Shown in pieces: positions 25,380-37,501 of a stretch of DNA of 37,806 nt. The notes under the pieces are model-generated. The model was not told where the DNA came from. It saw only the letters and a list, made by a program, of their open reading frames with translations, and did not search any database. The position numbers and the translations under genes were made by a program. Each line of letters starts with the position of its first letter. Position 1 is the first letter of the stretch. Location: NCBI GenBank assembly GCA_017545225.1, contig JAFWPR010000099.1, positions 1-37,806 on the forward strand, read 5' to 3'. This DNA is from Clostridia bacterium (lineage in GTDB: Bacteria; Bacillota; Clostridia; Oscillospirales; CAG-272).

Positions 25380-26471
25380 ATGAAAAAAAGGTATCTCATA
25401 CTCGAATCGGGCCGCGTGTTCGAGGGGGTCGGCTTCGGCGCGGATCCCTCGCCTGACGGTACGGTCGGCGAACTCGTATTCACGACCGGAATGTGCGGTT
25501 ATCTCGAATGCATAACCGACCCGTCGTATTACGGACAGATCGTGACGCAGACGTTCCCGATGATCGGAAACTACGGCGTGATCTCCTCCGATTTCGAGGG
25601 GCGTCCCGCCCTTTTCGGATACGTCGTCAGGGAGTGGTGTCCCGCGCCGTCGAATTTCCGGTCTGAGGGCGATATCGACTCGTTCCTGAAAGATCGCGGG
25701 ATCCCCGGGATCTGCGGGGTCGACACGAGGGAGATCACTAAACTGATCCGCGACCGCGGCGTCATGAACGCCGTCATCACGGACTGCGAGCCCGATTTTT
25801 CGCTTTACTCGCAGGCGCTTTCGTCATATAAGGTGCGGGGAGCCGTTCCCGCCGTCACGTCGACGCGCCCGAATCTTTTTCCCGCCGAGGGAGATGAAAA
25901 GTTCCGTGTCGTCCTCATCGACTACGGCGCGAAAGCGGGGATAACCGCGGCGCTGCGGGCGCGCGGATGCTCCGTTCTCTCCGTTCCCGCGAACACGGAC
26001 GCGGAGAGCATCCTCGAGATGAAGCCCGACGGCGTCATGCTCTCGAACGGGCCCGGCGACCCGACGGAAAGGCGCGACTGCATAGAAGAACTCAAAAAGA
26101 TATTCGGCAGAGTCCCGATCTTCGGTATCTGCCTCGGCCACTAGCTTCTCGCGCTCTCGACCGGCGCGCTGACCGAAAAACTGAAATTCGGCCACCGCGG
26201 GGCGAATCAGCCCGTCCGCGACGTGAAAAGCGGCAGAACGTATATCACCTCGCAGAACCACGGCTACGCCGTGAGAGTGGGGTCGCTCCGCCGCGGGACT
26301 ATGAGTTTTACAAACGCGAACGACGGGACCTGCGAGGGGATCGACTACGAGGACGAACGCGCCTTTTCGGTGCAGTTCCACCCCGAGGCGAGAAGCGGTC
26401 CTCACGACACAGCGTTTCTGTTCGACCGGTTCGTCCGGATGATGGAGGTGAGACGGAATGCCAAAGGATAG
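25380..26471 (+). pseudogene. carA: Carbamoyl-phosphate synthase small subunit with an in-frame amber codon
   Basis: The glutaminase subunit frees ammonia from glutamine for CarB. Read through, the frame has 363 codons, normal for CarA: the N-terminal domain, then a class-I glutamine amidotransferase with nucleophile Cys251 in FGICLGH. The very next codon, at 26142-26144, is TAG where the family has glutamine (one C-to-T change from CAG). The reading frame then continues without loss through LLALSTGALTEK and the HP-E part of the triad (FHPEAR near the end) to a TAG overlapping carB. A truncated product would lack two catalytic residues. It may be a recent nonsense mutation, a consensus error or a read-through codon. 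I chose ATG 25380, preceded by AAAGGA. Confidence 0.88.
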
Positions 26472-29400
26472 TTCGATCCGCAAGGTGATGGTCATCGGCT
26501 CCGGTCCTATCGTCATCGGTCAGGCGGCGGAGTTCGACTACGCCGGAACACAGGCGTGCCGCGTCCTCGAAGCGGAGGGGATCGAAACGGTCCTCGTCAA
26601 CTCGAACCCCGCGACGGTCATGACGGACACCGACCTCGCCGAGGAAGTCTACCTCGAACCTCTCACCGTCGAGACGGTAAAAAGAATCATAAAAAAAGAA
26701 AAACCCGACTGCCTGCTCGCCGGTCTCGGCGGCCAGACGGGGCTGACGCTCGCCGTAAAGCTTTACGAGGACGGGTTCCTCGACGAGAACGGCGTCCGTC
26801 TCATCGGCTCCAACGTCGACGCGATAAAGAAGTCTGAGGACAGGCAGCTGTTCAAGGACACGATGGCGGCGATCGGCGAACCGACGATCCCGTCGGACAC
26901 CGCGCACGACGTCGAAAAGTCTTTGAAGATCGCCGAAGAGATCGGATATCCCGTCATCGTCCGCCCCGCGTACACGCTCGGCGGAGGCGGAGGCGGCGTC
27001 GCGTATAACGAAGAGGAGCTGAAAACGGTCGCCGCGGCGGGTATCGCCGCGTCGCCGATCGGTCAGATCCTCGTCGAAAAATACATCTACGGCTGGAAAG
27101 AAATAGAATTTGAAACGATGCGCGACGGCAAGGGCAACGTGATCGCGGTCTGCTCGATGGAGAACGTCGATCCGGTCGGCGTCCACACCGGCGACTCCGT
27201 CGTCGTCGCTCCCGCGCTGACGCTCTCGGACAGGGAGTATCAGACGCTGCGCAGCGCGTCGCTCAACATAATCTCGGCGCTCGGTATCGTCGGCGGGTGC
27301 AACTGCCAGTTCGCGCTCGACCCGGAGAGCTTCGACTACGCCGTCATCGAGGTCAATCCCCGCGTTTCGCGTTCGTCCGCTCTCGCCAGCAAGGCGACCG
27401 GCTACCCGATCGCGAAGATCACCGCGAAGATCGCGCTCGGCTACACGCTCGACGAGATAAAGAACGACGTGACCGGAAAGACGTGCGCGTGCTTTGAGCC
27501 CGCGCTCGACTACGTCGTCGTCAAACTCCCGAAATGGCCGTTCGACAAACTCCACGGCTCCTCGCGCAAGCTCGGAACGCAGATGAAGGCGACGGGCGAG
27601 GTCATGGCGATCGCGCCGTCGTTCCCCGCCGCGCTCATGAAAGCGGTCCGCGGCGCGGAGATCGGAACGGAGACGCTCGGCATACGCTTCTTTGAGGGCA
27701 AAACGGAAAAAGAACTGCTCGGTTCGGTCGGCACGTGCGACGACAGACGGCTCTTCGCCGTTTTCGCCGCGCTGAAAGCGGGGATCTCGGTCGATACGAT
27801 CTCAAAGATCACACGCATCGACCCGTTCTTCGTATCGCAGATAAAACGGCTTGCCGATTATGAAAACAGGATCTCGGGCCTCTCGCTCGACTCGGCGGAC
27901 TATCTCGAGGGCAAGAAGCTCGGCTACACCGACGCCGCGCTCGACGCCCTCTCGGGATATCCCCTGCCGTGCCACCGCGAGACGGTCTTCCGCATCGTCG
28001 ACACGTGCGGCGGCGAGTTCGACGCGGAGACTCCCTACTACTATTCCTCGTACGACGAGGACTGTGAGGCGCGCCACGCGGCGCGCGCTCCCGGCAAGAC
28101 CGTCGTCGTCCTCGGGTCGGGGCCGATCAGGATCGGTCAGGGGATAGAGTTCGACTACTCGTCCGTCCATTGCGCGACGACGCTCCGCCGTCTCGGCTAC
28201 GAGGTCGTCATCATAAACAACAACCCCGAAACGGTCTCTACCGACTACGATACGGCCGACAGACTTTACTTCGAGCCGCTGACGCCCGAGGACGTCATGA
28301 ACGTCGTCGCCGTCGAGGAACCGATCGGCGTCGTCGTGGCGTTCGGCGGCCAGACTGCAATAAAACTCACGAAATATCTCGACTCGCGCGGGATCAGAAT
28401 TCTCGGCACGTCGGCCGAGGGCATCGACACGGCGGAAGACCGCGAGCGGTTCGACTCGCTTCTCGGCTCGCTCGGCATAAAGCGGCCCCGGGGAATGGGC
28501 GTCACCGGTACCGACGAGGCGATCCGCGCCGCAAATGAGCTCGGGTACCCCGTTCTGCTCCGTCCGTCGTACGTCATCGGCGGACAGAACATGAGGATAG
28601 TATGGTCCGACCGCGAAGTCAGGGAATACATGGCTCCGATCCTCGAGGCGGGCGTAGACAGCCCCGTTCTCGTCGACAAATACATGAGCGGGATCGAACT
28701 CGAACTCGACGTCATCTCCGACGGCGAGGACGTGCTGATCCCCGGGATCATGGAACACGTGGAGCGGGCGGGCGTCCATTCGGGCGACAGCATCGCCGTT
28801 ATCCCCGCCTACAAACTGAACGACAAGATGACGTCCGTTGTCATAGAACAGGCGACGGCGATCTCGCTCGCGCTCGGCACGCGGGGACTCGTCAACATCC
28901 AGCTTCTGATCTGGCGCGGCGAGCCGTACGTGATAGAGGTCAACCCGCGCGCGTCGCGTACCGTTCCTTATATCAGCAAGGTAACGGGCGTTCCGATGAT
29001 CGAGCTCGCGACCCGCGTCATGGTCGGCGAAAAGCTCGCCGGCATGGGCTACGGAACGGGTCTCTACAAAACGCCGCCGTACTTCGCGGTCAAGGTCCCC
29101 GTCTTCTCGTTTGAAAAACTGCCCGACGCTTTCTCCGGTCTCGGACCGGAGATGAAGTCTACGGGCGAGGTACTCGGGATAGGCAAGGACCTGAACGAGG
29201 CGCTCTTCAAGGGGATGCGCTCGGCGGGACTGCTCCTGCCGTCCTCGCTCCGCCGCGAGGGAGTCGGTTTCTTCCTGCACGCCGACGAAAAGGACGTCCA
29301 CGAGCTGATCGACCTCGCGAAGAAACTCGGCGATCTGCACTTCACGCTCTACGCGTCGAAGTCGACGGCCGAGATGATCTCGAAACTCGGCAGCGAAGTG

Positions 29401-30429
29401 ACCGTCCTCGACGAATCGTGCGCCGACGGAAAACTCCTCTCGCTTCTTGACGGAGGGGATATCAGCTACGTCGTGTACTCGGCGCTCGAGAACGCCGAAG
29501 ACGTCGGAAACTTCGAGACGATCCACGCGCGCGCCATCGCGCTCTCCGTACCGTGCCTCACGTCTCTCGACACGGCGGAGGCGCTCGCGGACATCATCGC
29601 GAGCCGGTACGCCGAGCACAACACCGAGCTCGTCGACATCAACACGATGAGGAGCGAGAGGATGAAACTCCCGTTCTCGAAGATGGAGGCGACGGGCGCC
29701 GACTATATCGTCATCGACGACCGCGACGGGACGATCACGTGTCCCGAATCGCTCTGCATAAAACTCTGCGACCGCCACTACGGCGTCGGCGGGTACGGCA
29801 TCGCCCTGATAGAGAAGCCGGACGACCCCGACGCGCACGTGAAGATGCGCCTGTTCAACAGGGACGGCAGCGAGGGCTTCATCGCCGGAACGTGCATCCG
29901 CTCGGTCGCGAAATACGTTTACGACCGCGGGATCGCGAAAGAGGACGTGATAAAGATCGAAACGGCGTCCGGGATCCGCCCCGTCAGCGTCTACACCTCC
30001 GACGGCAGAGTCACGATGGCGGGCGTCGAGATGGGCCGCGCGGAATTCGCGCCCGAAAAGATCCCCTGCTCGCTTGACGGCGGCGAGATCGTCGACCGAC
30101 CGGTGAAGATTGCGGGCGGCGATTACCGGATCACGTGCCTTTCCGTCGGCAACCCGCACTGCGTCGTGTTCTGCGACAGAGTCGACGGCCTCGACCTCGA
30201 TACGATCGGTCCGAGGTTCGAGTTCGATCCGATCTTCCCGGAGCGCGTGAACACCGAGTTCGTCCGCGTCGTCGACCCGACGACGCTCCGGATGCGCGTT
30301 TGGGAGCGCGGCAACGGCGAGACGTTCGCCTGCGGCACGGCGCCTGCGCGGCGGTCGCGGCGGCGGTCAGGAACGGCTTCTGCCCGAAGGGCGAGGACGT
30401 CACCGTCAAGGTCACCGGCGGCGACCTGA
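26458..30429 (+). CDS. carB: Carbamoyl-phosphate synthase large subunit fused to a DapF-like domain
   Basis: As sequenced the frame has 1323 codons. Residues 1 to about 1063 are a complete CarB: two homologous halves, each with an ATP-grasp domain (SGPIVIGQ near 15, then EVNPRVSR near 300; SGPIRIGQ near 555, then EVNPRASR near 833), and a C-terminal MGS-like allosteric region ending NTELVDIN. It makes carbamoyl phosphate from bicarbonate, ammonia and two ATP. There is no stop after this. The frame passes at Met1069 into a domain like diaminopimelate epimerase. It starts inside the carA stop region (14-nt overlap). A missing base near 30340 makes the last 29 residues out of frame and Arg/Ser-rich; see the next entry. 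Confidence 0.93.
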   Translation: MPKDSSIRKVMVIGSGPIVIGQAAEFDYAGTQACRVLEAEGIETVLVNSNPATVMTDTDLAEEVYLEPLTVETVKRIIKKEKPDCLLAGLGGQTGLTLAVKLYEDGFLDENGVRLIGSNVDAIKKSEDRQLFKDTMAAIGEPTIPSDTAHDVEKSLKIAEEIGYPVIVRPAYTLGGGGGGVAYNEEELKTVAAAGIAASPIGQILVEKYIYGWKEIEFETMRDGKGNVIAVCSMENVDPVGVHTGDSVVVAPALTLSDREYQTLRSASLNIISALGIVGGCNCQFALDPESFDYAVIEVNPRVSRSSALASKATGYPIAKITAKIALGYTLDEIKNDVTGKTCACFEPALDYVVVKLPKWPFDKLHGSSRKLGTQMKATGEVMAIAPSFPAALMKAVRGAEIGTETLGIRFFEGKTEKELLGSVGTCDDRRLFAVFAALKAGISVDTISKITRIDPFFVSQIKRLADYENRISGLSLDSADYLEGKKLGYTDAALDALSGYPLPCHRETVFRIVDTCGGEFDAETPYYYSSYDEDCEARHAARAPGKTVVVLGSGPIRIGQGIEFDYSSVHCATTLRRLGYEVVIINNNPETVSTDYDTADRLYFEPLTPEDVMNVVAVEEPIGVVVAFGGQTAIKLTKYLDSRGIRILGTSAEGIDTAEDRERFDSLLGSLGIKRPRGMGVTGTDEAIRAANELGYPVLLRPSYVIGGQNMRIVWSDREVREYMAPILEAGVDSPVLVDKYMSGIELELDVISDGEDVLIPGIMEHVERAGVHSGDSIAVIPAYKLNDKMTSVVIEQATAISLALGTRGLVNIQLLIWRGEPYVIEVNPRASRTVPYISKVTGVPMIELATRVMVGEKLAGMGYGTGLYKTPPYFAVKVPVFSFEKLPDAFSGLGPEMKSTGEVLGIGKDLNEALFKGMRSAGLLLPSSLRREGVGFFLHADEKDVHELIDLAKKLGDLHFTLYASKSTAEMISKLGSEVTVLDESCADGKLLSLLDGGDISYVVYSALENAEDVGNFETIHARAIALSVPCLTSLDTAEALADIIASRYAEHNTELVDINTMRSERMKLPFSKMEATGADYIVIDDRDGTITCPESLCIKLCDRHYGVGGYGIALIEKPDDPDAHVKMRLFNRDGSEGFIAGTCIRSVAKYVYDRGIAKEDVIKIETASGIRPVSVYTSDGRVTMAGVEMGRAEFAPEKIPCSLDGGEIVDRPVKIAGGDYRITCLSVGNPHCVVFCDRVDGLDLDTIGPRFEFDPIFPERVNTEFVRVVDPTTLRMRVWERGNGETFACGTAPARRSRRRSGTASARRARTSPSRSPAAT

Positions 30430-30506
30430 TCGTCAACTTCCGCGACGACGGGATCACCCTCTCGGGCGATGCGAAACTCGTCTTCGACGGCGTAACGGAA
30501 TATTGA
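29662..30506 (+). pseudogene. DapF-like (diaminopimelate epimerase family) segment, frameshifted at its end
   Basis: This is the C-terminal part of the carB frame, about 281 codons, the usual DapF length. Family landmarks are FSKM, NRDGSEG, FPERVNTEFVRV and RVWERGNGETFACGT. The second catalytic Cys is present (Cys1292 of the fusion). The first, in the usual Met-Cys-Gly-Asn, is Ala1143 (IAGTCIRS), with a Cys three residues on. GND near the start is GAD, and GADG is GGYG. After codon 30337-30339 one G seems missing from ACG-GGC-GCC. In the -1 frame the family's C-terminus continues perfectly (AVAAAVRNGFCPKGED) to TGA at 30504-30506. AGGAG lies 7 nt before its own ATG, so it could be translated separately. 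Confidence 0.75.
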
Positions 30507-30608: not shown

Positions 30609-31400
30609 TTGAAAGCGGAAAAACCGTATCGCGGCGGCGCATCGCGCGCGGCGGTCTGCGCGCTGCTGCTCTTTGTTTTGGGAGGGATCGTTTTGTTCGG
30701 ACTTTTCGGATGCGGCAAAAAAACGCCTGAGTACAAAATCGACTTCTCGGGGGAGGAGTCGTGGTACGAGGGGGCGAAAAAAACGTACCGCGAGGGAGAG
30801 ACGGTCACGCTGTACTATAATCTCATCGCGACGGACACGGACTACAAATTTCTGCTCGACGGAGAACCGATAAACTTCGGTTACGACGACGAACACGGCT
30901 TCGTGATAACGTTCGTCATGCCCGCGCACGACGTGAAACTCGAGTGCGAGACGAGAAACTCGATGGAATACGTCCCGGAGATCGTCCCGGATATCCTTCT
31001 TTTCGACTATTACTCGGCGACGACCGGGACCGACGGGTACGACAGCCACGTCGAGTATACCCTCTCGACGTATTCGAGAGACCAACACCGCCTCTCAGTC
31101 TATGTCAAGGAGTCGCCCGAGGAAGAAGAGACGAGGACCGACTATCTCGTTCCCGCCGAGCTGTCCGAGAAGTGCTACCGCGCCGTATACGAGTACGAAA
31201 TGGACAAGTGGGCGGACCGCGACGATCTTGAGCCGATCGACGGAGCGGTCGTCGTCCTGAAATACAAAAACGGCGAGGAATACGTCAGACTCTCGTCGGA
31301 AGCCGCGCCGTACGGAGGCGTCGCCGAGATGGACTCGATCGGTATGATGCTGACAGAGTACGCTGCCCCCGATTATCTTGAAGAGGAGGGACACGAATGA
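30609..31400 (+). CDS. Lipoprotein with a C-terminal YAAPDYL motif, possible modification substrate
   Basis: A 263-residue exported protein. A basic start is followed by a hydrophobic stretch (about 14-33) and a lipobox with Cys35 (LFGCGKK). Residues about 60-110 resemble the small beta-rich extracellular repeats that end in FVMPAHDV. The rest is acidic and unrecognised. The last residues hold Tyr251-Ala-Ala-Pro-Asp-Tyr-Leu257, the same type of motif that repeats in the next gene. I chose the TTG start at 30609 because GGGAGG lies 8 nt upstream and the nearby ATG at 30604 opens a two-codon frame. The stop overlaps the next start (ATGA). The exported lipoprotein is well supported; the role is inferred. 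Confidence 0.8.
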   Translation: MKAEKPYRGGASRAAVCALLLFVLGGIVLFGLFGCGKKTPEYKIDFSGEESWYEGAKKTYREGETVTLYYNLIATDTDYKFLLDGEPINFGYDDEHGFVITFVMPAHDVKLECETRNSMEYVPEIVPDILLFDYYSATTGTDGYDSHVEYTLSTYSRDQHRLSVYVKESPEEEETRTDYLVPAELSEKCYRAVYEYEMDKWADRDDLEPIDGAVVVLKYKNGEEYVRLSSEAAPYGGVAEMDSIGMMLTEYAAPDYLEEEGHE

Positions 31401-31957
31401 TATTCCGCGACAAGATCTACCCGTGGATCAAGAGCATTTTCAGAAAGAAAAAGCCCGAACAGTACGCCGCGGGCGTCTACGCCGGCCCCGAATCGTTCGG
31501 CGGCGAAACGAAGAAGCTTTACGAGGGGCCCGATCTCGACACGGAGAGCAAGCCCGTCGAGGACGTCTACGCGGGACCCGAATACTATGAGGGCGCTCCG
31601 GTCGAGCCGGAGGAAGGCGGCGACCTGCCCGACGCGCCCGAAGACGGACCGGCGCGCCCCGAAGCAAACGAAGAAGAAACCGAAGAAGACGACAGACCCG
31701 TAATGGCTCTGTACGCCGCGCCGGCATACCTCGCCGATCAGCCCCCGGTCATGTGCGTTTACGCGGGACCCGAGTTTTTCGCAACGCGGCGCGACGGCGA
31801 CGGAGGCGAGTTTGCCCCGGCTCCCGCTCCGGAAGAAGGCGGGAAAGAAACCGCGGAAGGCGAGGACGGACCGCGCTGTCCGACGTGCGGTGCCGCAGTT
31901 CCCGAAGACGCGCCGTTCTGCCATGAATGCGGCACGCCGCTGAAAAAAGATGAATAA
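31397..31957 (+). CDS. YAGP-repeat protein with C-terminal zinc ribbon, candidate radical SAM substrate
   Basis: A 186-residue acidic protein without a signal peptide. A basic, amphipathic N terminus of about 20 residues precedes five copies of a (V/L)Y-x-(G/A)-P-x-x-(aromatic or hydrophobic) motif: VYAGPESF (27-34), LYEGPDLD (41-48), VYAGPEYY (57-64), LYAAPAYL (105-112) and VYAGPEFF (121-128). Between them lie Glu/Pro/Asp-rich linkers. The C terminus is a zinc ribbon with CPTC (161-164) and CHEC (175-178). Short repeated motifs in disordered linkers just before a radical SAM/SPASM gene look like a multi-core precursor. I know of no firm family name. It overlaps the lipoprotein by 4 nt and the radical SAM gene by 8 nt. 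Confidence 0.8.
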   Translation: MIFRDKIYPWIKSIFRKKKPEQYAAGVYAGPESFGGETKKLYEGPDLDTESKPVEDVYAGPEYYEGAPVEPEEGGDLPDAPEDGPARPEANEEETEEDDRPVMALYAAPAYLADQPPVMCVYAGPEFFATRRDGDGGEFAPAPAPEEGGKETAEGEDGPRCPTCGAAVPEDAPFCHECGTPLKKDE

Positions 31958-33002
31958 CGGCTCAACGCGGGACGAATTCCCGTTCCGCCTGCGCTCGTGC
32001 GTATGGGAGATCACGCTCGCGTGCTGTTTCAGGTGCGCCTACTGCGGCTCCCGTGCCGGCGAAGCGAGAGAAAACGAGCTGTCGACGGAAGAGTGCCTTT
32101 CCGTTGCGGAACAGCTCGCCGATATGGGCTGCCGCCGCGTCTCGATGATCGGAGGCGAGGTCTTCATGCGCCCCGACTGGGAGACGATCGTCGGCGCGCT
32201 GACTTCGCGCGGCGTTATCACGTGCATCATAACGAACGGATTCCGCATGACGGAACCGATAATCGCCGCCCTGAAGCGAGTCGGGATCGAGTCGGTCGCC
32301 GTCTCGATCGACGGGGTCGCCGAGGTCCACGACAAATACCGCCTGGCGGGCAGTTACGAACGCGCGATGGCTGCGCTTGACGTCCTCTCCGAGGCGGGGA
32401 TTCCCGTCTCCGTAATCAGCGCTCTGCGCGCGGACAACGCGCCGCGAATCCCTGAATTTTACGAAATACTCAAGACGAAGAAGATATTCGCGTGGCAGAT
32501 CCAGGCGTGCTCGCCGATGGGCAACGCGGCGGGCGACGCCGTCGACGTGAAGTTCGACGCGGAAAAGGTCATGAAATTCGTCGCAGAAAACGCGGGACGC
32601 GACCCGTTCTATATCGGGATCGCGGACAATATCGGCTACTACACGCCCGAGGAGGCGGCGATCCGCGGGAAGCGCGGGCTCGTTTTCGAGGGCTGTTCCG
32701 CCGGACTCACCACGCTCGGCATCGACAGCGTCGGCAACGTGCGCGGGTGCGAGTCGATGTACGATGAGCGTTTCAACGAGGGCAACCTGAGAGAAAGATC
32801 GCTCCGGGACATCTGGCGCGATCCGGACGCGTTTACCTACAACAGGAAGTTCACGCCCGGCATGCTCGCGGGCGGATGCGCGGAATGCCCTAAGGGCCCC
32901 GTATGCGCGGGCGGATGCCGCTCGTACAACTGGTTCACGACGGGAAAACTCTACGAAAACGCGCTTTGCCCCCGCAGCGGGATAAATGTGAACAACGGAT
33001 GA
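31950..33002 (+). CDS. Radical SAM/SPASM domain protein, putative peptide-modifying enzyme
   Basis: A 350-residue radical SAM enzyme. The SAM-binding [4Fe-4S] cluster motif is C-x3-C-x2-C at Cys25, Cys29 and Cys32 (ACCFRCAYCGS). GGEVFMR at 68-74 corresponds to the GGE segment. The C-terminal SPASM part has Cys249, Cys267, Cys310, Cys313, Cys319, Cys323 and Cys340, the seven-Cys pattern that holds auxiliary clusters. SPASM enzymes mostly modify peptides or proteins, for example forming crosslinks in RiPPs or formylglycine. The gene overlaps the YAGP-repeat gene by 8 nt, pointing to that protein as the substrate. No maturation protease, transporter or clear leader-binding partner is adjacent. 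Confidence 0.92.
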   Translation: MNNGSTRDEFPFRLRSCVWEITLACCFRCAYCGSRAGEARENELSTEECLSVAEQLADMGCRRVSMIGGEVFMRPDWETIVGALTSRGVITCIITNGFRMTEPIIAALKRVGIESVAVSIDGVAEVHDKYRLAGSYERAMAALDVLSEAGIPVSVISALRADNAPRIPEFYEILKTKKIFAWQIQACSPMGNAAGDAVDVKFDAEKVMKFVAENAGRDPFYIGIADNIGYYTPEEAAIRGKRGLVFEGCSAGLTTLGIDSVGNVRGCESMYDERFNEGNLRERSLRDIWRDPDAFTYNRKFTPGMLAGGCAECPKGPVCAGGCRSYNWFTTGKLYENALCPRSGINVNNG

Positions 33003-33989: not shown

Positions 33990-35960
33990 CTATGTGCTTA
34001 GCTTTCGCCGCCCGGAACAGTACGGGCAACCTTGTCCTCTTGATCGGTGACTTGGCGTAGCCTCGTAGCTATGCCCTTTTGGACATACCCACCAGTATTT
34101 TATGCCACTTCCCCTTGTAACTTTTTCGGGAATCTCACTATTCTTGCTATAGTCCCACTCCTTTGCAATATCTGGCGCAGCAGAGACTAAATCGTTGATT
34201 CCGGGATGGAGTCGAGCCTTTTTCGCAAGTGTACCTCGTCTTTCTTTATAACAAAAAGGACATCCGCGTCCTTTTACTCGGTTTGCAACAGACGCTTCAT
34301 AACTGTGACCTTGTGGGCAGATCCACCAGTATTTTGCGGGGCTTCCGTGTGTAACATTTACGGGAATCTCTTTGTTTCTGGTATAGTCCCACTCCTTTGC
34401 AACATCAGGAGCGACAGTTACAAGATCGTTGATGCCGGGAAGAAAATGCCTCTTTCTGGCGGCCTTGCTCAATTTTGCGCTTTTACATAAAGGACAACCT
34501 CTTCCGTTCACTCTCGAATAAATACCTGCTCTCCAATTATTACCACACTCCCTGCAAATCCACCACGCTTTTATCGCACTATATGCCGGAATACAATCAG
34601 GTTTTAGCCCATAGTTCTTTTCGAAATCCCATTCTTCGACTAGGTTGGGCGCTATAGACGCAAGGGATCTTTCTGCAGCATTCTGCGAGAAGCTAGCTGC
34701 AATTTTGACATTATCTCTATCTATGTCAATTTCTGGGACGGAGTGGCAGATGTTTTCTTCTGCAAGAATCGAAAAGAGTTCTATTAATGCGTCATTGATG
34801 TGCGTAAAGTCTCCTTTTGGCGTTGATGTGAAAATGATTGTGCTTCCGTCATTGATTACAGCACAGTTTGGCTCTCGGATTCTAAACAGACGTATTTGAG
34901 AAGCTATGATAGCCCTTCCTTTGTATTCATCATTTGCTTTCTTTGCTTCTCCATGCCACCGCTGACCATCATATTCTATACCTATTTTACGTGACGGGAT
35001 GAACACATCGATTTCGTTCTTTGCATTAAGCATATAGCCATTCTCGGCATCCGGGAAAACGCTCTTGATGTAATAGAAAAGAATCTGTTCTATCTTGGAA
35101 GTATGAAACCATCTTTTGCATCTTGGGCATGTGGTTTTGGGGCCAGTCCTTGCTGCTACTGTCGTCTTCCACTCATTGCCGCATACAGGACAAAGCCACC
35201 ACACCGATTTGTTGCTTGCGGAAGTAACATCTTCCGGCATAAGAGGAAGATTCTTCTCGGGATGCCATTGTCTGGCTATTTCGGGATATTGTGAAGCAAG
35301 ATCGTTGAATCCTACCAATACAGATCTTCCAGCACAAAATGGGCAGTTCGTACCCCTTTCCGCGGTTCTATTACTGACCTGTGCCCTATACGAGTGACCT
35401 TTAGGACATATCCACCAAGCATAGGTGTGTGTATGGGGGGTAACTTCATCGGGGGCTTTCTCGTTTTTTTCAACATCCCACTCTGCAGCAACCTCTGGAA
35501 ATAGCGTCTTGAGGTCATTTATGCCTTTTGCCAACCTGTGACCGGAGCAGATTGGACATCCAGTTTTCATGTTCACTCTGGTGTTAGGTGACTCTAAGAA
35601 AGAATGCCCTTTATCACATTTCCACCAATACTTTTTTGCAGTATTGGGGAACACTTGGTCGGCGGAAACAGCATTTTTCTCATTGTCCCACTCTTTTGCC
35701 AAATCCGGGAATAGGGCTTTTAAATCATTATGACCAGACCACACTTTTTGATGTGCGCAGACAGGGCAAGATCTCCCACTTGTTCGGTTGCTGATTTCAG
35801 ATTCCCATTCAAATCCGCAGGCAGTACATTTCCACCACACTTTTTTCCTGCTATGAGGATAGTACTGCTCGGGGCGAAATTCATTTCTCTCGTAGTTCCA
35901 CTCTGATGCTATCTCTGGATAGCAGTGTAAAAAGGAACGGTCTGGAGGCGGGTATTTCAT
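33990..35960 (-). CDS. Seven zinc-ribbon repeats with a central Vsr-like nuclease domain
   Basis: A 656-residue protein. Four repeats of about 65 residues, then a nuclease-like domain (about 287-400), then three more repeats. Each repeat has a Glu-Trp near its start, Trp-Trp, a CxxC or C-x-x-G-H and a closing CPxC, the pattern of the DUF4379 treble-clef/zinc-ribbon family. The central domain carries EIDVFIPSRKIGIEYDG (about 316-332), like the PD-(D/E)xK-fold Vsr nucleases, and KIEQ before it. Such proteins may read DNA through the ribbons and cut it, in defence or mobile-element control; that is inference. I chose ATG 35960 because AAAGGA lies 6 nt upstream; two earlier ATGs are worse placed. 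Base composition differs from its neighbours. Confidence 0.88.
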   Translation of the reverse strand: MKYPPPDRSFLHCYPEIASEWNYERNEFRPEQYYPHSRKKVWWKCTACGFEWESEISNRTSGRSCPVCAHQKVWSGHNDLKALFPDLAKEWDNEKNAVSADQVFPNTAKKYWWKCDKGHSFLESPNTRVNMKTGCPICSGHRLAKGINDLKTLFPEVAAEWDVEKNEKAPDEVTPHTHTYAWWICPKGHSYRAQVSNRTAERGTNCPFCAGRSVLVGFNDLASQYPEIARQWHPEKNLPLMPEDVTSASNKSVWWLCPVCGNEWKTTVAARTGPKTTCPRCKRWFHTSKIEQILFYYIKSVFPDAENGYMLNAKNEIDVFIPSRKIGIEYDGQRWHGEAKKANDEYKGRAIIASQIRLFRIREPNCAVINDGSTIIFTSTPKGDFTHINDALIELFSILAEENICHSVPEIDIDRDNVKIAASFSQNAAERSLASIAPNLVEEWDFEKNYGLKPDCIPAYSAIKAWWICRECGNNWRAGIYSRVNGRGCPLCKSAKLSKAARKRHFLPGINDLVTVAPDVAKEWDYTRNKEIPVNVTHGSPAKYWWICPQGHSYEASVANRVKGRGCPFCYKERRGTLAKKARLHPGINDLVSAAPDIAKEWDYSKNSEIPEKVTRGSGIKYWWVCPKGHSYEATPSHRSRGQGCPYCSGRRKLST

Positions 35961-36036
35961 AGTCATTCCTTTCACTTCTCGTTGGGGTGGTGGTAAAGAT
36001 GATCGTTTCATCCAACAAGCTCAATTGACCAGGTTA

Positions 36037-37165: not shown

Positions 37166-37501
37166 TCAGAAATTGGAGCCGGACCAGCCCCAGGTGCCCG
37201 TTTCCTCGTATTTGACGTAGACCCTGTTCTCCGGCGCGCCGGTCGCCTCCGCGAGCGCGCGGCAGAGCTCTGCCGTCAGTTTGTCGTAAGCGTCGCGGGA
37301 CGCCGCGCCGAACAGGGAGACCTCCGCCATGACGCAGAGTTCCTCCGTTCCGGCGAACGCCATTTTCGCGCCGTCCTCGACCTTCGTCATCAGCCATCTC
37401 TCGGTCTTGCCGGGGATGAGGGCGATAGCCTCGCCGAGTTTCTTTTCAAGTTTGCAGGCGTCCACGCCGGACGCGTTCGTCGTAACTTTGATATAAGGCA
37501 T
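37166..37501 (-). CDS. MIF-like tautomerase
   Basis: A 111-residue protein of the macrophage migration inhibitory factor/phenylpyruvate tautomerase family. After Met removal the N terminus is the catalytic Pro (MPYIKVTTN). Lys32 in IPGKTERW is in the usual place for the second active-site residue. The C-terminal WGWSGSNF matches the family's trimer-interface end. The tautomerase activity is likely; the in vivo substrate is unknown. It lies 2 nt after mrnC and 10 nt before the flavin-reductase-like gene. Confidence 0.9.
   Translation of the reverse strand: MPYIKVTTNASGVDACKLEKKLGEAIALIPGKTERWLMTKVEDGAKMAFAGTEELCVMAEVSLFGAASRDAYDKLTAELCRALAEATGAPENRVYVKYEETGTWGWSGSNF

What the first reader, a model, noticed from the sequence alone, without database searches (positions are those of the whole stretch)
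30609..33002. Candidate undescribed system: YAGP-repeat protein, motif-bearing lipoprotein and radical SAM/SPASM enzyme in one overlapping operon
Seen: three genes overlap by 4 and 8 nt. The middle protein has five (V/L)Y-x-(G/A)-P repeats in acidic linkers plus a zinc ribbon, and the third gene is a textbook radical SAM/SPASM enzyme. Known: SPASM enzymes mainly modify peptides or proteins, often precursors encoded next to them. Inference: the repeats are modification sites, the zinc ribbon or basic N terminus serves as recognition element, and the Tyr and Pro side chains are the likely targets. I know of no described family with this layout.
Basis: partly seen in the sequence, partly recalled or inferred. 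Interest (0 to 1): 0.85.

Follow-up and report, generated by a model that had tools for sequence, protein, structure and literature searches.

The report
Splicease-like enzyme with YAGP-repeat substrate
Gut Clostridia carry a two-gene unit in which a radical enzyme sits beside a protein with repeated Val-Tyr-Ala-Gly-Pro sites, and its family ties suggest that the enzyme cuts part of each tyrosine out of that protein's backbone, a rare chemistry that would plant reactive ketones in the protein.

Summary
In detail: three genes overlap by 4 and 8 nt; the middle one has five Y-x-(G/A)-P sites and a zinc ribbon; the third is a radical SAM/SPASM enzyme. The pair is conserved: of 80 related loci fetched, all 78 with usable upstream DNA have a protein with such sites directly before the enzyme (75 by script, 3 by eye). 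The lipoprotein is not part of the unit (5 of 81 loci). The enzyme shares a supported clade (98/95.7) with the PlpX type, the GDL-motif type and a clostridial X-Y-G type; 9 of these 13 relatives show X-Y-G/A/M peptides or repeat proteins nearby. [quoted passage not shown] Best reading: V-Y-A-G-P repeats are splice sites, each losing about 135 Da, in a probably cytoplasmic zinc-ribbon protein. This is inferred, not shown. Against it: Ala, not Gly, follows Tyr; no PlpY or Nif11 leader was found; X-Y-G-P-P motifs also occur beside a more distant enzyme family of unknown chemistry. The main splicease survey (Scott 2022) could not be read. New variant of a known kind.

The parts
31397..31957 (+). 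YAGP-repeat zinc-ribbon protein (186 aa), proposed multi-site substrate
   Evidence: a protein with such sites directly before the enzyme in 78 of 78 usable loci
31418..31435 (+). YPWIKS element near the N terminus, proposed recognition element
   Evidence: a YP element in 68 of 75 homologues by regex, not always N-terminal
31475..31489 (+). site 1, VYAGP
31517..31531 (+). site 2, LYEGP
31565..31579 (+). site 3, VYAGP
31709..31723 (+). site 4, LYAAP
31757..31771 (+). site 5, VYAGP (followed by EFF)
31877..31930 (+). C-terminal zinc ribbon CPTCGAAVPEDAPFCHEC
   Evidence: Pfam PF13240, E 4.8e-8; regex hit in 67 of 75 homologues
31950..33002 (+). radical SAM/SPASM enzyme (350 aa), proposed splicease-like maturase
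   Evidence: nearest solved folds PqqE, SuiB and SkfB
32022..32045 (+). CxxxCxxC motif of the radical SAM cluster (C25, C29, C32)
   Evidence: invariant in 32 aligned enzymes
32493..32522 (+). clade signature WQIQ....MG (residues 182-191)
   Evidence: 38 of 38 rows of the joint clade, 0 of 10 others
32625..32639 (+). clade signature DNIGY (residues 226-230)
   Evidence: 38 of 38 rows of the joint clade in the form [DN][NC]xGY, 0 of 10 others
32694..32891 (+). SPASM domain (residues 249-314)
   Evidence: PF13186, E 3e-7
30609..31400 (+). lipoprotein gene overlapping by 4 nt: a neighbour, not a core member
   Evidence: family in 5 of 81 loci by clustering, in one (L052) downstream on the other strand; tblastn adds a 27-aa match in L095

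Best explanation
A two-gene protein-modification unit. The YAGP protein and the radical SAM/SPASM enzyme are made from overlapping genes. [quoted passage not shown] The window's protein would lose up to five such units. The zinc ribbon and/or the Y-P-W-x-K element most likely bring enzyme and substrate together in place of the Nif11 leader and PlpY of the known system. The product is a probably cytoplasmic protein with an array of ketoamides; its likely use is reversible covalent binding of nucleophiles, for instance as a protease inhibitor. Shown here: conserved pairing, site conservation, clade. Inferred: the reaction, the docking, the use.
For: Pairing: 78 of 78 usable loci of 80, and 4 of 4 further genomes (L151-L154), there upstream, downstream or on both sides of the enzyme. 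Overlap or near-contact kept: median gap -4 nt over 75 loci, taking the in-frame start nearest the stop. Beyond the pair no family exceeds 13 of 81 loci, and that one is minus-strand ORFs over the pair. Sites are repeated (median 4, up to 10; 73 of 75 proteins have two or more) and conserved. Clade: the window enzyme scores 249 bits on TIGR04103 and 226 on TIGR03913, next 133; 38 rows (25 YAGP, 8 X-Y-G type, 5 PlpX/GDL) form one side of a branch, support 98/95.7. Neighbours of the relatives, 9 of 13 rows: Nostoc TIGR04103 enzyme (853 bits) with a Nif11 peptide ending LYGLPPELF; two Azospirillum enzymes and one of Aureibacter with DUF1843 peptides LYGG, PYGV, PYGP, MYMA, LYAA, MYAA, PYGA; clostridial enzymes with LYGIEP, LKYGVP, KYGV or LKYGYPCG repeats. 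Pro at Y+3 recurs in YAGP, Nostoc and part of the X-Y-G type. Chemistry of PlpX: passages in PMC11002830 and PMC10533398.
Against: No mass data. Y+1 is Ala in 90% of 309 strict sites and Gly in only 4%; the window has no literal X-Y-G, and site 2 is LYEGP. The TIGR04103 cut-off (725) is far from met. No PlpY-like gene by tblastn in any other held locus (a weak test for so short a protein) and no Nif11 leader. X-Y-G-P-P motifs also stand beside TIGR04133-like enzymes L135, L137 and L139, which lack the clade signatures and whose chemistry I do not know, so the motif alone does not prove splicing. 4 of the 13 relatives show no such neighbour: L133 and L134 (short stretches only), L140 and Tropicibacter L145. 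For L131 it lies about 2.3 kb away (L148). The tree program warned of long branches that meet, also between the PlpX/GDL rows and the YAGP rows. That IPR026482, named for PlpX in the paper, equals TIGR04103 is recalled.
Confidence: 0.6

Rival explanations
1. The repeat protein is the substrate, but the enzyme does another radical SAM/SPASM reaction at Tyr or its neighbours: a mycofactocin-like Val-Tyr oxidation or bond, a cyclophane, an epimerisation or a thioether.
For: SPASM enzymes do many reactions (PMC8326336 passages). V-Y is the C-terminal pair of MftA, and the mycofactocin model is third best on the window enzyme, 133 bits. TIGR04133-like enzymes with X-Y-G-P-P lipoproteins are of chemistry unknown to me.
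Against: Mycofactocin acts on a C-terminal V-Y (for the precursor), whereas these sites are internal and repeated; MftC lies outside the joint clade and lacks both signatures; the relative with a published reaction, PlpX, acts on X-Y-G.
Confidence: 0.27
2. Tyramine excision happens, but the repeats are separate cores of a multi-core peptide precursor: linkers are later cut and short ketoamide peptides are released; zinc ribbon and N terminus are follower and leader. (A rival on the use of the product, compatible with the best chemistry.)
For: Core-like repeats 21 residues apart (median) in acidic, fast-changing linkers; spliceotide products are called protease inhibitors (PMC11117315 passage).
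Against: No protease or exporter family is conserved in the neighbourhood; 0 of 75 proteins has a 19-residue stretch over 1.6 in hydropathy; the related L147 repeats are attached to an inhibitor domain.
Confidence: 0.3
3. The repeat protein is a partner or scaffold of the enzyme, not its substrate.
For: CxxC pairs like zinc ribbons also stand in sister enzymes: C-terminal in Azospirillum and Aureibacter, N-terminal in Tropicibacter, by eye; Pfam support is weak, below cut-offs.
Against: The repeated, conserved Y-x-G-P sites and their likeness to the motifs beside sister enzymes have no role in this reading.
Confidence: 0.06

Closest known systems
PlpX/PlpY splicease and Nif11/NHLP precursors (TIGR04103, spliceotides)
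   Same: Radical SAM/SPASM enzyme next to a substrate with hydrophobic residue-Tyr-small residue and Pro at Y+3 (LYGLP in Nostoc; LYGLP in the splice tag, PMC10533398); same clade; [quoted passage not shown]
   Different: Score 249 against cut-off 725; Ala after Tyr; no PlpY and no Nif11 or NHLP leader found; substrate is a repeat protein, median 193 aa in 75 homologues and mostly with a zinc ribbon, with up to 10 sites.
GDL-motif peptide / DUF1843 system (TIGR03913)
   Same: Enzymes of the sister branch; peptides with X-Y-G or X-Y-A (LYAA, MYAA) and two or three peptide genes per locus; ribbon-like CxxC pairs in the system.
   Different: There the CxxC pairs are on the enzyme; the DUF1843 peptides are 54-70 aa with mostly one candidate site each; window score 226 against cut-off 591.75.
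Clostridial X-Y-G repeat proteins beside TPR-bearing radical SAM enzymes (L146-L149)
   Same: Multi-site proteins or peptides near the enzyme: LKYGVP behind an Inhibitor_I42 domain (L147), LKYGYPCG (L149), LYGIEP (L146), KYGV (L148).
   Different: X-Y-G, not X-Y-A; the enzyme has a C-terminal TPR region in 4 of 4 scanned; no zinc-ribbon match on the three of these substrates scanned (L146, L147, L149).
TIGR04133/TIGR04134 radical SAM with lipoprotein
   Same: TIGR04133-like enzymes (255-280 bits, cut-off 425) next to small proteins with X-Y-G-P-P.
   Different: Enzyme outside the joint clade and without its signatures; the motif follows a lipobox-like stretch. The window's own genome has no TIGR04134 match, nor do the three lipoproteins match an NCBIfam model.

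Membership tests
PlpX-type splicease (TIGR04103) | radical SAM CxxxCxxC and SPASM domain | tested here: met
PlpX-type splicease (TIGR04103) | score over the curated cut-off | tested here: not met
   249 against 725 bits
PlpX-type splicease (TIGR04103) | literal X-Y-G site in the neighbouring precursor | tested here: not met
   window sites are VYA, LYE, VYA, LYA, VYA; Y+1 Gly in 4% of 309 strict sites
PlpX-type splicease (TIGR04103) | Nif11 or NHLP leader | tested here: not met
   no such Pfam match in the repeat protein
PlpX-type splicease (TIGR04103) | PlpY partner gene | tested here: inconclusive
   tblastn of the 71-aa Nostoc ORF found only itself, and that this ORF is PlpY is my guess from size and place; no further family is widely conserved beside the pair; PqqD-like genes of the genome lie on other contigs
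splicease clade (PlpX + GDL + X-Y-G type + YAGP) | common clade against MftC and other clostridial SPASM enzymes | tested here: met
   98/95.7 with 45 rows; 87 SH-aLRT in a quick 48-row tree with more outgroups; long-branch warnings in both
splicease clade (PlpX + GDL + X-Y-G type + YAGP) | tyramine excision | not testable with these tools
   needs mass spectrometry
GDL-motif system (TIGR03913) | score over cut-off and DUF1843 peptide | tested here: not met
   226 against 591.75 bits; no DUF1843 match in the repeat protein
mycofactocin (TIGR03962) | score over cut-off and C-terminal Val-Tyr precursor | tested here: not met
   133 against 265 bits; motifs are internal
TIGR04133/TIGR04134 radical SAM with lipoprotein | enzyme over cut-off and lipoprotein family match | tested here: not met
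   130 against 425 bits; no TIGR04134 match in the genome

The most novel reading that the evidence does not exclude
A dedicated system for endogenous protein modification, not natural-product making: an X-Y-A-G-P-specific splicease that works without PlpY or a leader and turns a cytoplasmic zinc-ribbon protein into a polymer-like carrier of up to ten or so alpha-keto-beta-amino acids, spread as a two-gene cassette among gut Clostridia.
Probability: 0.35. Interest if true: 0.8.

Novelty: new variant of a known kind. Interest (0 to 1): 0.62.

Why it matters
Excision of tyramine from the backbone is a rare way to put beta-residues and ketones into genetically encoded proteins, and it is already used as a labelling tool (PMC10533398 passages). 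A compact enzyme of about 350 aa with no evident partner gene and a short, clear V-Y-A-G-P site could be a second, possibly orthogonal, tag. It would also raise the question why gut Clostridia keep ketone-bearing zinc-ribbon proteins.

Tried and rejected
Lipoprotein as third member: rejected (5 of 81 loci by clustering, plus a 27-aa tblastn match in L095; motif not kept). Fusion of substrate and enzyme in one ORF (L117): the called enzyme ORF starts 66 nt upstream of the match and holds no repeat. Mycofactocin-type maturase: rejected as membership. A clean outgroup without X-Y-G neighbours failed: TIGR04133-like enzymes have X-Y-G-P-P lipoproteins, which widens the motif and weakens it as proof.

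Literature searched: 'YAGP' with 'radical SAM', 0 papers; VYAGP, YAGPEYF, YAGPEFF, CVYAGP, one unrelated paper; radical SAM + zinc ribbon + RiPP + precursor, 0; splicease + clostridi, one bacteriocin review seen in the listing only; model names, only PMC11002830; general splicease searches. Passages, not whole papers, were seen of PMC8326336, PMC10533398, PMC11002830, PMC11117315, PMC10373908 and PMC12710340. Not held: Scott 2022, Morinaka 2018, Richter 2024. So I cannot say that this clade is unpublished.

Limits of the counts: 8 family genomes also have the repeat protein beside the enzyme, but most look like the same contigs as loci (equal contig lengths), so I do not add them to the 78. 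The scan kept 80 of 206 relatives. The signatures were read off the same sequences.
Full report
What is there. The window (one contig of a 2.33 Mb, 87% complete genome) holds three + strand genes: a lipoprotein (30609-31400), a 186-aa repeat protein (31397-31957) and a 350-aa radical SAM/SPASM enzyme (31950-33002), overlapping by 4 and 8 nt. The repeat protein has five Y-x-(G/A)-P sites, a YPWIKS element and a C-terminal zinc ribbon.

The pair is conserved. A scan of a collection of 84,980 species genomes with an alignment of eight enzymes found 206 relatives, of which the best 80 were kept; they match at 61-94% identity; 63 of 80 titles point to ruminant gut, 2 to horse, 15 to neither. A script found an ORF with at least one [VLIAM]-Y-x-[GA]-P ending next to the enzyme match in 75 of 80. 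Of the five misses, two have no usable upstream DNA (0 and 52 nt), and three (L092, L114, L115) carry VYAPP or VYASP variants just upstream, seen by eye. So 78 of 78 usable loci. 73 of the 75 proteins have two or more Y-x-[GAPSC]-P sites; L046 and L066 have one, and L066 has a second repeat gene upstream. Four further genomes from a class-level search also have such proteins upstream, downstream or on both sides of the enzyme (L151-L154). The gap between the two genes has a median of -4 nt (nearest in-frame start chosen). A strict DNA pattern for V-Y-A-G-P-[ED]-[YF]-[FL] and close variants occurs in 5 of 146 family genomes; all five are among the nine that have the enzyme at E 1e-60 or better, and all eight hits lie at the locus.

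What is not conserved. Clustering of called ORFs within at most 6 kb in 81 loci gave the enzyme in 69, the repeat protein in 42 (linkers diverge, and the greedy caller lost some genes), then 13 loci with minus-strand ORFs over the pair, then 9 with an upstream gene of another kind, and 5 or fewer for the rest. The lipoprotein family is in 5 of 81 loci, once downstream on the other strand, plus a 27-aa tblastn match in L095, and its C-terminal YAAP reads YATP, YASP or YAAG or is missing in the four homologues. I leave it out of the unit.

The sites. In 75 repeat proteins there are 309 strict sites: residue before Tyr Val 88%, after Tyr Ala 90%, then Gly 90% or Ala 10%, Pro (by definition), then Glu 45%. 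V-Y is followed by Pro at Y+3 in 280 of 292 cases against 23 of 558 in 889 control ORFs. Sites per protein: median 4, up to 10; spacing median 21 residues. Against the two nearest homologues, site residues are kept in 25 of 25 and 21 of 25, ribbon residues in 15 and 9 of 18, the rest in 106 and 52 of 143. A zinc ribbon is found by regex in 67 of 75, a YP element in 68 of 75. None of 75 has a 19-residue stretch over 1.6 in hydropathy, so the protein is probably cytoplasmic.

Which enzyme it is. NCBIfam gives TIGR04103 (249 bits, cut-off 725) and TIGR03913 (226, cut-off 591.75) well ahead of the next model, mycofactocin (133). In a 45-row tree the YAGP enzymes (25 rows, 100/99), the PlpX/GDL type (5 rows, 100/99) and a clostridial X-Y-G type (8 rows, 100/99) together form one side of a branch (98/95.7) against two MftC and five other clostridial enzymes; three of those five were tested and are nearest TIGR04133. 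Three long-branched outgroups had been dropped after a quick 48-row tree, in which the same 38 rows had SH-aLRT 87. The program warned of long branches that meet in both trees. All 38 rows share WQ[ILV]Q....MG and [DN][NC]xGY; none of 10 others does. W182, Q183 and Q185 fall in a strand of the predicted structure (181-185; mean pLDDT 78.6, block 181-190 at 74). Nearest solved folds are PqqE, SuiB and SkfB; no entry named as a splicease was among the 11 sequence matches in the PDB.

What stands beside the relatives. The Nostoc enzyme, over the TIGR04103 cut-off (853 bits), sits by a Nif11 peptide that ends LYGLPPELF. Two Azospirillum enzymes (annotated as GDL; the one scanned, 768 bits, is over the cut-off) and an Aureibacter enzyme (best on the same model at 535 bits, under the cut-off) sit by DUF1843 peptides with LYGG, PYGV, PYGP, MYMA, LYAA, MYAA or PYGA. 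Clostridial X-Y-G-type enzymes, with TPRs in 4 of 4 scanned, stand near proteins with LYGIEP (L146), LKYGVP behind an Inhibitor_I42 domain (L147), KYGV (L148, about 2.3 kb away) and LKYGYPCG (L149). In all, 9 of the 13 non-YAGP rows of the clade have such a neighbour. PlpX is published to excise tyramine at Xaa-Tyr-Gly and leave an alpha-keto amide (PMC11002830 passage); it acts on MYG and LYG, needs no leader and can be used on proteins (PMC10533398 passages); the products are reported to inhibit proteases (PMC11117315 and PMC10373908 passages). That PlpX's IPR026482 is TIGR04103 is recalled.

Reading. Enzyme kinship, site conservation and the shared X-Y-(G/A) pattern, often with Pro at Y+3, make V-Y-A-G-P most likely a tyramine-excision site and the protein a multi-site splicease substrate. 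Ribbon-like CxxC pairs are on the enzyme in Azospirillum, Aureibacter (C-terminal) and Tropicibacter (N-terminal) by eye (Pfam zinc-ribbon matches there are below cut-offs), but on the substrate here, which suggests, without proof, that they serve docking. I put 0.9 on 'the repeat protein is the substrate' and about 0.6 on the splicing chemistry.

Results against. Ala, not Gly, follows Tyr; model cut-offs and the Nif11 leader are not met; no PlpY was found. X-Y-G-P-P also stands beside TIGR04133-like enzymes (255-280 bits, cut-off 425), which lack the signatures. Four of 13 clade relatives show no X-Y-G neighbour in what I looked at: L133, L134, L140 and Tropicibacter. The most relevant paper could not be read, so novelty is stated with reserve.

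Noticed in passing
L135:863-1240, L137:2507-2809, L139:2575-2874: TIGR04133-like radical SAM enzymes sit beside small lipoprotein-like ORFs with X-Y-G-P-P after a lipobox-like stretch, repeated in L135 and L139. This may be a membrane-anchored cousin of the YAGP system.
   Followed up: partly
L147:2293-3237 and L149:2845-3789: X-Y-G repeat proteins beside TPR-bearing radical SAM enzymes; the L147 one begins with a chagasin-type inhibitor domain (Inhibitor_I42, E 5.3e-12), which fits a protease-inhibitor role for ketoamide products. L149 looks alike by eye, but Pfam does not report the domain there.
   Followed up: partly
window 26458-30506 +: Carbamoyl-phosphate synthase large chain fused to diaminopimelate epimerase; the epimerase end seems to continue in another frame, 30135-30506, so a frameshift or assembly error is likely here.
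   Followed up: partly
window 33990-36011 -: 673-aa protein with seven DUF4379 treble-clef zinc-finger stretches.
   Followed up: no
window 37166-37501 -: Bacterial MIF-family protein, E 6.5e-11.
   Followed up: no
L066, L096, L101, L152, L153: Two YAGP-repeat genes at one locus, in L152 and L153 on both sides of the enzyme.
   Followed up: partly
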